Of a stretch of DNA of 53,718 nt, positions 5,408 through 7,435 are shown one piece after another. The DNA lies in NCBI GenBank assembly GCA_016841945.1, contig JAENYC010000003.1, forward strand, positions 88,247 through 141,964, read 5' to 3'. Positions within the stretch are counted from its first letter, which is position 1, and the number at the start of each line of letters is the position of its first letter. A program made the translations under genes and the position numbers. This DNA comes from Haloplasma contractile. Its GTDB lineage: Bacteria; Bacillota_I; Bacilli_A; Haloplasmatales; Haloplasmataceae. The notes under the pieces were generated by a model that did not search any database, was not told the DNA's origin, and saw nothing but the letters and a program-made list of their open reading frames with translations.

Positions 5408-5968
5408 ATGGATAATGTATTGGTGTTAAGTACAAATCAGCTTTTTAATAAAAAAATGAAACGTATCCTTACAGTTAACGCTATGTTTCATTCAAATAGT
5501 GTCAATCTAAATATCTTAAACCGATTGATTAATCAGAAAAAACCAAAGGTATTAATTGTACACCATAGCGTTAACTGTATGAATATAACTAAGCTATTTA
5601 ATTACTTAGTGGTAAATAAAATTATTCCTATTATATATATTAATAACACCATCAACTATGGTCAATTTTATCAAGTTTTAAATGATCCTTTTTTCATCAA
5701 TATAGAAGAAACTAAAATGGAGACACCTTTACCCATTATCATCAATTATTTTATACAAACTAAAAAAGAAATCATTAAATTATATCAACAAGTAGATAGG
5801 TTAGAATCAAAACTAAAAGATAAGGAAACAATTCATCAAGCCAAATATAAGCTAATGGAAAGAAAAAAAATGACTGAGGATGAAGCACATCAATATATTG
5901 TCAAAGAAGCAATGAATAAAAGAGTGAGTAAAAAACAAATTGCATTAGAAATATTAAAAAATAATTGA
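5408..5968 (+). CDS. ANTAR-domain RNA-binding antiterminator with degenerate receiver domain
   Basis: A 186-residue protein. Residues about 1-115 have the length and alternating beta/alpha pattern of a response-regulator receiver, but the strand expected to carry the phosphoacceptor Asp reads VLIVHHSV, so no Asp is present there. A coiled-coil stretch (about 118-150) leads into a C-terminal ANTAR domain (about 140-184). This ends LMERKKMTEDEAHQYI...AMNKRVSKKQIALEIL, matching the three-helix ANTAR consensus. ANTAR proteins bind paired hexaloop hairpins in nascent RNA and prevent terminator formation. Just such a leader lies directly downstream in front of glnA, and the gene's TGA stop overlaps the -35 box of the glnA promoter. 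It is therefore the likely regulator of glnA; the signal it senses is unknown. Confidence 0.88.
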   Translation: MDNVLVLSTNQLFNKKMKRILTVNAMFHSNSVNLNILNRLINQKKPKVLIVHHSVNCMNITKLFNYLVVNKIIPIIYINNTINYGQFYQVLNDPFFINIEETKMETPLPIIINYFIQTKKEIIKLYQQVDRLESKLKDKETIHQAKYKLMERKKMTEDEAHQYIVKEAMNKRVSKKQIALEILKNN

Positions 5969-5993
5969 CAATTCTTACTATATCGCATATAAT
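5965..5993 (+). promoter_or_regulatory. consensus sigma-A promoter for glnA
   Basis: TTGACA (5965-5970), exactly 17 bp, TATAAT (5988-5993): a perfect consensus promoter. The -35 overlaps the stop codon of the ANTAR gene. The predicted start near 6000 puts the transcript's first bases directly at the ANTAR-type hairpin. Confidence 0.85.
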
Positions 5994-6002
5994 ACTCTAT
6001 AA

Positions 6003-6016
6003 AGACAAAGGTGTCT
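6003..6016 (+). promoter_or_regulatory. ANTAR target hairpin P1 in the glnA leader
   Basis: Stem AGAC/GTCT (6003-6006 with 6013-6016) closes the hexaloop AAAGGT, which has the A at position 1 and G at position 4 required in ANTAR recognition loops. It is about 20 nt upstream of a second hexaloop candidate, AAAGAT, at 6037-6042. Confidence 0.7.
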
Positions 6017-6034
6017 AAAAATATATAAAAAAAT

Positions 6035-6044
6035 ACAAAGATGT
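6035..6044 (+). promoter_or_regulatory. candidate ANTAR hairpin P2 overlapping the terminator stem
   Basis: AC/GT closes the hexaloop AAAGAT (A1, G4). The flanks (ACAAAGATGTC) nearly repeat the P1 loop and 3' arm (ACAAAGGTGTC), but only 2 bp of stem are clear, so this element is weaker than P1. The loop bases are the first bases of the terminator's 5' arm, so P2 and the terminator are mutually exclusive. Confidence 0.5.
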
Positions 6045-6084
6045 CAAATGCACATAATGTGTGCATGGTTTGACATCTTTTTTT
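6037..6084 (+). terminator. glnA leader attenuator (intrinsic terminator)
   Basis: A perfect 12-bp outer stem (6037-6048 with 6069-6080) and a 6-bp inner stem (6049-6054 with 6060-6065), separated by a 3-base bulge, lead into seven T (6078-6084). It ends just before the glnA ribosome site AAGGAGG. As it sits between promoter and gene it must act as an attenuator. Confidence 0.9.
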
Positions 6085-6100
6085 ATTTAAGGAGGAAAAA

Positions 6101-7435
6101 ATGTATACAAAAGATGAAATTTTAAAAATGGCCCAAGATGAAAATGTGAAATATATTCGCCTATGTTTTACTGATATCAATGGTGTCATCAAGAATGTGG
6201 AAATACCTGTACGGGAGTTAGAAAATGCTTTAGATGGAAAGATTATGTTTGATGGGTCTTCTATTGAAGGATTTGTGAGAATTCAAGAAGCAGATATGTT
6301 TTTAATTCCAGATTATAATACGTGGTTAATTCATCACTGGGAAGAAAATGCCTATGGAAAAGTTGCAAGGCTAATCTGTGATATTCATAATTCAGATGGT
6401 ACCCCTTTTTCTGGTGATCCACGACTTAATTTAAAGCGCATCACAAATCGAATGGAAGCACTTGGTTTTTCAACATTTAATATTGGGGTAGAACCAGAAT
6501 TTTTCTTATTTAAATTAAATAAGGATGGTCAACCTACTTTAGAATTTAATGATTTAGGTGGTTATTTTGATTTATCACCCATTGATGGAGCTGAGGATTG
6601 TCGTCGTGATATCGTGTTAGAGTTAGAAAAATTAGGTTTTAACATGGAAGCATCCCATCATGAAGTAGCACCTGGTCAACATGAAATTAACTTTATGTTT
6701 GCAAATGCGGTTGAGGCCTGTGATAACATTCAAACGTTTAAACTAGTGGTTAAAAATGTTGCCAAAAGACATGGTTTACATGCCACTTTTATGCCAAAAC
6801 CAATCGCAAAGATAAACGGTAGTGGCATGCATACCAATTGTTCACTTCAATATGAAAATGGTGAAAATGCCTTCTATGATGAAGAGGATGAAATGAAACT
6901 ATCTACTGTATGTCGAGAATGGATTGCTGGTATTATGAAACATGCAAGAGGATTTACCGCAATTACCAATCCACTGGTAAACTCATATAAACGTTTGGTT
7001 CCTGGTTATGAAGCCCCATGTTACATCTCTTGGTCGGATGCCAATCGTTCTGCGATGATACGTATTCCCGCCACAAGAGGCAGTAAAACGAGAACTGAAA
7101 TAAGAAGTGTCGACCCATCTAGTAATCCCTATCTTGCAATGGCTGTAATTCTAGCAGCAGGTCTTGATGGTATTAAAAATCATTTAGAAGTGGTTAAACC
7201 AACATATGCCAATTTATTTAATATGACAGATGAAGAAAGAGATACCTTAGGTATCTATCATCTACCAGAAAACTTATTTGAAGCCATTGAAGCATTAAAA
7301 AAAGATGAAGTAATAAAAGAAGCTTTAGGTAAGCACATTTTTGATAAATTTATTGCCGCTAAAAAATCGGAATGGGAAAATTATATAACTTATATCACCG
7401 ATTGGGAAATTAATCGTTATCTATCTATTCTATAA
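6101..7435 (+). CDS. glnA: type I glutamine synthetase (GSI-alpha)
   Basis: ATP-dependent synthesis of glutamine from glutamate and ammonia, cytoplasmic dodecamer. The 444-residue length equals the Gram-positive GSI-alpha form. Visible signatures are FDGSSIEGF near residue 50, the metal/substrate segment [22 protein letters not shown], the ATP-binding [31 protein letters not shown] and [14 protein letters not shown]. The adenylylation loop of the beta form is not seen, so control should be by feedback and transcription. AAGGAGG precedes the ATG at good spacing. Expression is predicted to depend on ANTAR antitermination in the 130-bp leader. Confidence 0.97.

What the first reader, a model, noticed from the sequence alone, without database searches (positions are those of the whole stretch)
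5965..6100. ANTAR-controlled attenuator between a consensus promoter and glnA
Seen: TTGACA-17-TATAAT; a 4-bp stem with loop AAAGGT (A1, G4); about 20 nt later a loop AAAGAT whose bases are also the first bases of a 12-bp terminator stem with T7; then the glnA ribosome site. The gene directly upstream encodes an ANTAR protein. Known: ANTAR regulators bind two hexaloop hairpins with A1/G4 and thereby prevent the overlapping terminator; ANTAR-glnA pairs are described in some clostridia. Inferred: the same logic controls nitrogen assimilation here, in a Mollicute-like lineage. The regulator's stop codon overlaps the -35 box, so the whole circuit is unusually compact.
Basis: partly seen in the sequence, partly recalled or inferred. 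Interest (0 to 1): 0.7.

Follow-up and report, generated by a model that had tools for sequence, protein, structure and literature searches.

The report
ANTAR antitermination switch before glutamine synthetase
The start of this bacterium's glutamine synthetase message carries a built-in stop signal that an RNA-binding protein, made by the gene just upstream, most likely cancels; many related bacteria share this known type of nitrogen switch, here in a compact version with a poorly paired second binding site.

Summary
Between an ANTAR-domain gene (5408-5968) and glnA (6101-7435) lie a perfect sigma-70 promoter, a 4-bp hairpin with loop AAAGGT, a second A1/G4 loop (AAAGAT) embedded in an intrinsic terminator, and the ribosome site.

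In a 395-genome survey of the class, 46 genomes hold an ANTAR gene. In 26 loci it sits directly upstream of glnA, and 21 of these leaders end in a terminator. In the 19 best leaders A1 and G4 are kept in loop 1 (18/19, 19/19) and loop 2 (19/19 both), and the terminator stem covaries. Three genomes of one family carry the same element before an ammonium transporter far from the ANTAR gene, which is evidence for action in trans. glnA leaders of three ANTAR-less genomes lack it.

ANTAR control of glutamine synthetase genes is already described (NitR; Ramesh 2012), so this is not a new kind. Differences from the EutV model: hairpin 1 sits at the predicted 5' end of the RNA, the two sites lie further apart, the second site has only 0-2 stem pairs in this and a related family, and the receiver-like domain lost its phosphorylation site. 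What is sensed is unknown; glutamine synthetase itself is a plausible sensor.

The parts
5408..5968 (+). gene for the ANTAR-domain RNA-binding regulator (186 aa): degenerate receiver-like N-domain, coiled coil, ANTAR 131-183
   Evidence: Pfam ANTAR 6.8e-15; best PDB sequence hits AmiR 7e-8 and EutV 7e-5; Foldseek of a single-sequence model: EutV 1.3e-6, Rv1626, AmiR; the only ANTAR gene in its genome
5965..5993 (+). sigma-70 promoter TTGACA-17-TATAAT of the glnA leader; -35 overlaps the ANTAR stop codon
   Evidence: 12/12 consensus; TATAAT conserved at the same distance from P1 in relatives
6000..6001 (+). predicted transcription start (about 7 nt after the -10 box); inferred, not measured
   Evidence: position only; P1 stem starts 7-9 nt after TATAAT in 19 of 26 leaders
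6003..6016 (+). P1 hairpin AGAC-AAAGGT-GTCT (loop 6007-6012)
   Evidence: z -3.9; stem paired in 13/13 sequences and loop AANGRN conserved
6035..6044 (+). P2 half-site AC-AAAGAT-GT (loop 6037-6042; only 2 pairs)
   Evidence: A1 and G4 19/19; third pair broken in 11/13
6037..6084 (+). intrinsic terminator, 5' arm begins with the P2 loop; U-tract 6078-6084
   Evidence: -21.5 kcal/mol, z -5.9; covariation 7 pairs with double changes, 0/500 shuffles
6090..6095 (+). ribosome-binding site AGGAGG of glnA
   Evidence: sequence
6101..7435 (+). glnA, type I glutamine synthetase (444 aa)
   Evidence: TIGR00653 1.9e-167 above its cut-off

Best explanation
This is an ANTAR-type transcription attenuator for glnA. 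RNA polymerase starts at about 6000 and makes P1 as the first structure of the transcript. Without active regulator the terminator forms from the P2 loop bases onward and transcription stops near 6084 (structure and covariation shown; termination inferred). Active ANTAR dimer made from the upstream gene recognises the A1/G4 loop of P1 and then the P2 loop as it emerges. Holding the P2 loop keeps the 5' arm of the terminator from pairing, so glnA is transcribed (inferred from EutV and NasR). By analogy with NitR the switch should turn glnA on under nitrogen limitation. The receiver-like domain cannot be phosphorylated in the usual way, so activity is probably set by a partner protein or ligand, as for AmiR/AmiC.
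For: ANTAR gene directly upstream of glnA in 26 loci of 25 genomes from four families. P1 loop A1 18/19 and G4 19/19, P2 loop A1 and G4 19/19, while loop position 3 varies: a recognition signature equal to the published eut consensus AGC-AANGRR-GCU (PMC3369931). Terminator stem 97% paired with double changes in 7 pairs, 0/500 shuffles, including pairs that use loop bases 2, 3 and 5 of P2. Promoter-P1 pattern in 395 genomes: 26 matches, 19 at glnA or amtB, 22 in ANTAR genomes, against 5 of 20 for the reversed control, p = 7e-5. Trans target amtB with P1, P2 and terminator in three genomes. glnA leaders of three ANTAR-less genomes lack it, and the one same-genus genome held lacks both ANTAR and this glnA. 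Protein fold like EutV and AmiR. No Rfam family matches.
Against: No binding, transcript or expression data. P2 has a 0-2 bp stem in families f1 and f12, below the 3-bp minimum used to define ANTAR targets, and forms no hairpin alone. A1-A1 distance 27-35 nt here and 44-50 in f11, against 24 in eutP, where lengthening the linker to 14 nt drastically reduced induction (PMC3369931). Several EutV RNA-contact residues are not conserved (my reading of the alignment). The 13 strongest model hits are the training sequences.
Confidence: 0.88

Rival explanations
1. Only P1 is a true protein site. The ANTAR protein bound at the 5'-terminal P1 acts on the polymerase or on the terminator by proximity, and the A1/G4 pattern in the terminator arm is a relic or constraint of the terminator sequence.
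For: P2 stem 0-2 bp in f1/f12 and none in two leaders of genus g17; EutV binds a single hexaloop (PMC8934654).
Against: P2 A1 and G4 are invariant in 19 leaders although terminator pairs at positions 2, 3 and 5 change in compensated fashion; the unpaired bases AC just 5' of the terminator arm are kept in 9 of 13 leaders; f11 has a full 5-8 bp P2.
Confidence: 0.1
2. A different signal (riboswitch, T-box, GlnR-type repressor) controls this leader and the ANTAR gene is a bystander.
For: A U-tract terminator in a leader is a common end point of many switches.
Against: No Rfam match; the leader is about 80 nt with no room for a large aptamer; none of the 40 GlnR-operator-like near-matches in the window lies in the leader; the element occurs with ANTAR genes and also at amtB in trans.
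Confidence: 0.03
3. Constitutive partial terminator: the hairpin merely lowers glnA expression or ends read-through from the ANTAR gene.
For: A terminator sits just behind the ANTAR gene.
Against: The promoter lies upstream of the terminator, so glnA's own transcript must pass it; the hexaloop sequence is conserved beyond what a terminator needs; same element at amtB, which is not next to ANTAR.
Confidence: 0.05

Closest known systems
EutV/EutW and the eut leaders of Enterococcus faecalis (ANTAR dual-hexaloop antitermination; PMC3369931, PMC8934654)
   Same: two A1/G4 hexaloops with AANGRN sequence, second one embedded in an intrinsic terminator; receiver-like domain, coiled coil, ANTAR fold
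   Different: P1 stem at predicted +3 or so (loop A1 is +29 in eutP); A1-A1 30 nt here against 24; P2 has 2 pairs, not 3 or more; no histidine kinase beside it; receiver lacks the Asp; target is glnA
NitR of Clostridium saccharobutylicum (ANTAR regulator of glutamine synthetase and glutamate synthase genes; Stutz 2007, as cited in PMC6316151; paper itself not read)
   Same: ANTAR protein tied to glutamine synthetase; described as an antiterminator that induces GS/GOGAT genes on nitrogen limitation
   Different: here the ANTAR gene precedes glnA with its promoter between; in NitR (from memory) it follows glnA. In this class both orders occur
AmiR/AmiC of Pseudomonas aeruginosa
   Same: best PDB sequence match of the regulator (7e-8); pseudo-receiver controlled by a protein partner encoded nearby
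   Different: no AmiC-like gene beside it; the neighbour is glutamine synthetase
ANTAR-target RNAs predicted near glutamine synthetase, glutamate synthase and ammonium transporter genes (Ramesh 2012, PMC3369931)
   Same: same motif, same class of target genes, terminator overlap
   Different: predicted with at least 3-bp stems in both hairpins; these lineages are not mentioned in the passages read (supplementary tables not seen)

Membership tests
ANTAR-target dual-hexaloop RNA (Ramesh 2012) | first hairpin of at least 3 bp with hexaloop A1/G4 | tested here: met
   P1 4 bp, loop AAAGGT; paired in 13/13 aligned leaders, A1 18/19, G4 19/19
ANTAR-target dual-hexaloop RNA (Ramesh 2012) | second loop with A1/G4 | tested here: met
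   19/19 leaders
ANTAR-target dual-hexaloop RNA (Ramesh 2012) | second hairpin stem of at least 3 bp | tested here: not met
   2 bp in the window, 0-2 bp in f1/f12; met in f11 with 5-8 bp
ANTAR-target dual-hexaloop RNA (Ramesh 2012) | terminator mutually exclusive with P2 | tested here: met
   terminator begins at P2 A1; covariation
ANTAR-target dual-hexaloop RNA (Ramesh 2012) | linker as short as in eut (5-12 nt; 14 nt nearly inactive for EutV) | tested here: not met
   18 nt in the window; A1-A1 27-35 and 44-50 nt in relatives
ANTAR domain protein (PF03861) | ANTAR domain above the Pfam cut-off | tested here: met
   55 bits against 27.3
phosphorylated response regulator (PF00072) | receiver domain with phosphoacceptor Asp | tested here: not met
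   no Response_reg match in window, L003, L004; Asp replaced (VHHSVN); f11 protein matches weakly, 8e-6, below cut-off. The fold is receiver-like (low-confidence model)
ANTAR antitermination | protein binds leader RNA and promotes read-through | not testable with these tools
   needs binding and transcription assays

The most novel reading that the evidence does not exclude
Glutamine synthetase itself is the sensor: product-inhibited GlnA holds the ANTAR pseudo-receiver inactive, as AmiC holds AmiR and as Bacillus GS holds TnrA, so that the enzyme directly feeds back on termination in its own leader. This rests on the recurrent ANTAR-GS gene pairing, the degenerate receiver, and the absence of a kinase among the neighbouring genes inspected; nothing here tests it directly.
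Probability: 0.3. Interest if true: 0.65.

Novelty: new variant of a known kind. Interest (0 to 1): 0.42.

Why it matters
It shows that ANTAR antitermination is a recurrent nitrogen switch in several families of this class, with targets glnA and, in one family, amtB. It supplies natural leaders that depart from EutV rules (5'-terminal P1, longer spacing, nearly stemless P2), which can test how ANTAR dimers move from the first to the second loop. The very short leader is a convenient test system for whether glutamine synthetase is the sensor.

Tried and rejected
Riboswitch, T-box or other known RNA: no Rfam hit at gathering score; E-value hits were eukaryotic microRNAs and a snoRNA by chance. 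GlnR-type operator: only chance-level near-matches, none in the leader. Further targets in the own genome: the model gives one hit at 4.9e-9, the next at 0.63; two other P1-like words are at chance level (control 5 against 3) and show no promoter-plus-terminator leader. No ammonium transporter in the own genome. A genome-contig scan gave one unrelated relative, so no organism names were obtained. Seven of 26 promoter-P1 pattern matches are coincidental or in coding DNA. A phylum-wide search found no relatives outside the class in 392 sampled genomes. The folding job used the window protein alone, so the N-domain model is of low confidence (pLDDT about 40-70).

Full report
OBSERVATION. Every element in the finding is in the sequence at the stated place. 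The promoter is a 12/12 match, and its -35 box contains the stop codon of the upstream gene. P1 is AGAC-AAAGGT-GTCT at 6003-6016. A second loop, AAAGAT at 6037-6042, is the start of a terminator stem (6037-6080) followed by seven T. The leader folds far better than shuffles (z -5.7; terminator alone z -5.9). The upstream gene is the only ANTAR gene in its genome (Pfam 6.8e-15), and the downstream gene is type I glnA.

CONSERVATION. A survey of 395 genomes of the class finds ANTAR in 46 (48 genes). In 26 loci from four families the gene sits directly upstream of a glutamine synthetase on the same strand; in 11 more the glutamine synthetase precedes it, often followed by pyrG; 11 have no GS within the stretch fetched. 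Of the 26 leaders, 21 have a terminator with U-tract after the loops. In the 19 best leaders P1 reads AANGRN: A1 18/19, A2 19/19, position 3 any base, G4 19/19; P2 has A1 and G4 19/19. This equals the published eut consensus AGC-AANGRR-GCU (PMC3369931), found here without using it.

STRUCTURE TEST. In 13 aligned leaders of families f1 and f12, P1 and the terminator together are 97% paired with double changes in seven pairs (0/500 shuffles; slid versions 36-51% paired). Among the covarying pairs are those made by bases 2, 3 and 5 of the P2 loop, so these bases serve both the loop and the terminator. The same test on a 3-bp P2 stem fails: the third pair is broken in 11 of 13. In family f11 P2 is a good hairpin of 5-8 bp.

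TRANS TARGETS AND CO-OCCURRENCE. A covariance model (R1) finds in the window's genome only this leader (4.9e-9; next 0.63). Across 395 genomes its 13 strong hits are its own training loci, so they are not independent. Among the next hits are three leaders in f11 genomes (42.5, 41.3 and 35.0 bits) that belong to ammonium transporter genes (Pfam 1.7e-121 for the one tested), far from the ANTAR gene, with a -10-like box, P1, P2 and terminator in the same order. Two other hits of similar score (G004, G095) lie at ordinary terminators behind coding sequence. A second pattern, TATAAT + 6-13 nt + GACAANGRNGTC, has 26 matches in 395 genomes. Of these 19 are glnA or amtB leaders, all in ANTAR genomes; 22 of 26 lie in ANTAR genomes against 5 of 20 for the reversed control (p = 7e-5; control tallied by hand; the pattern was designed after seeing the leaders). 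glnA genes of three genomes without ANTAR have no such leader. The one other genome of the same genus lacks both ANTAR and this glnA.

PROTEIN. Sequence search in the PDB gives AmiR, EutV and Rv1626. A single-sequence model, weak in the N-domain, is closest to EutV, Rv1626 and AmiR over the full length. The receiver-like domain has no phosphoacceptor Asp in f1 or f12, so an AmiR-like control by a partner is more likely than phosphorylation (inference).

MECHANISM. Shown: promoter sequence, conserved P1 and P2 loops, covarying terminator, gene pairing, trans targets. Inferred: start at about 6000, binding, antitermination, activation on nitrogen limitation. TATAAT ends 7-9 nt before the P1 stem in 19 of 26 leaders, so P1 should be the first structure made. 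In eutP P1 begins more than 20 nt downstream of the start (loop A1 is +29, PMC3369931). The spacing between loops (27-35 and 44-50 nt A1 to A1) exceeds the 24 nt of eutP, where lengthening the linker to 14 nt was harmful. EutV is thought to move from the first to the second loop (PMC8934654); these leaders would test that.

KNOWN OR NEW. ANTAR control of glutamine synthetase genes is known: NitR in Clostridium saccharobutylicum (cited in PMC6316151) and predicted leaders (PMC3369931, PMC3369936). I found no paper on this clade among the searches made. Because the 3-bp P2 stem and the eut linker range were tested and not met in the window, it is filed as a variant, not a plain member. It still most likely works like one.

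SIDE RESULTS. In five f22 genomes the second loop (ARAGGY) runs into a long hairpin without U-tract just before glnA: a candidate translational version (only five sequences). The second glnA of the own genome and the ANTAR gene of G005 have promoter-plus-terminator leaders with a P2-like start but no P1. In f21 genomes ANTAR precedes an rnfC gene.

Noticed in passing
L058, L062, L065, L069, L070 (family f22 glnA leaders): P1 followed by a conserved ARAGGY loop that leads into a long hairpin without U-tract, ending shortly before the glnA start, with conserved apical TGCAT-GCAT: possible translational ANTAR switch.
   Followed up: partly
own genome C5:51049-52368 (L030): A second glnA (78% identical to the window copy) with perfect promoter spacing and a leader terminator starting AATAGATGTC, P2-like, but no P1 and no ANTAR gene beside it.
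   Followed up: partly
L003 (genome G005), upstream of its ANTAR gene: The ANTAR gene itself has a TTGACA...TATAAT promoter and a terminator beginning AAC-AATGGT-GTT: possible autoregulation by a single loop.
   Followed up: partly
L034, L042, L044, L047, L049, L064, L072 (family f21): ANTAR gene directly before, in most cases overlapping, an rnfC-like gene (RnfC_N and Complex1_51K in L034): ANTAR possibly linked to ferredoxin-NAD electron transfer.
   Followed up: partly
L035, L041, L048, L073, L074, L075, L078, L079: Operon glutamine synthetase - ANTAR - pyrG (CTP synthase, a glutamine user), in some with an A1/G4 hairpin before the synthetase or before pyrG (L073, L075, L079).
   Followed up: partly
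own genome C61:10608-11231 (L125, L126): Two P-II-like matches in tandem, probably within one 223-aa open frame (only the first over the Pfam cut-off), in a genome without an ammonium transporter.
   Followed up: no
L021 (genome G058, second ANTAR-glnA locus): A second, diverged ANTAR-glnA pair whose ANTAR C-terminus departs from the family alignment.
   Followed up: no
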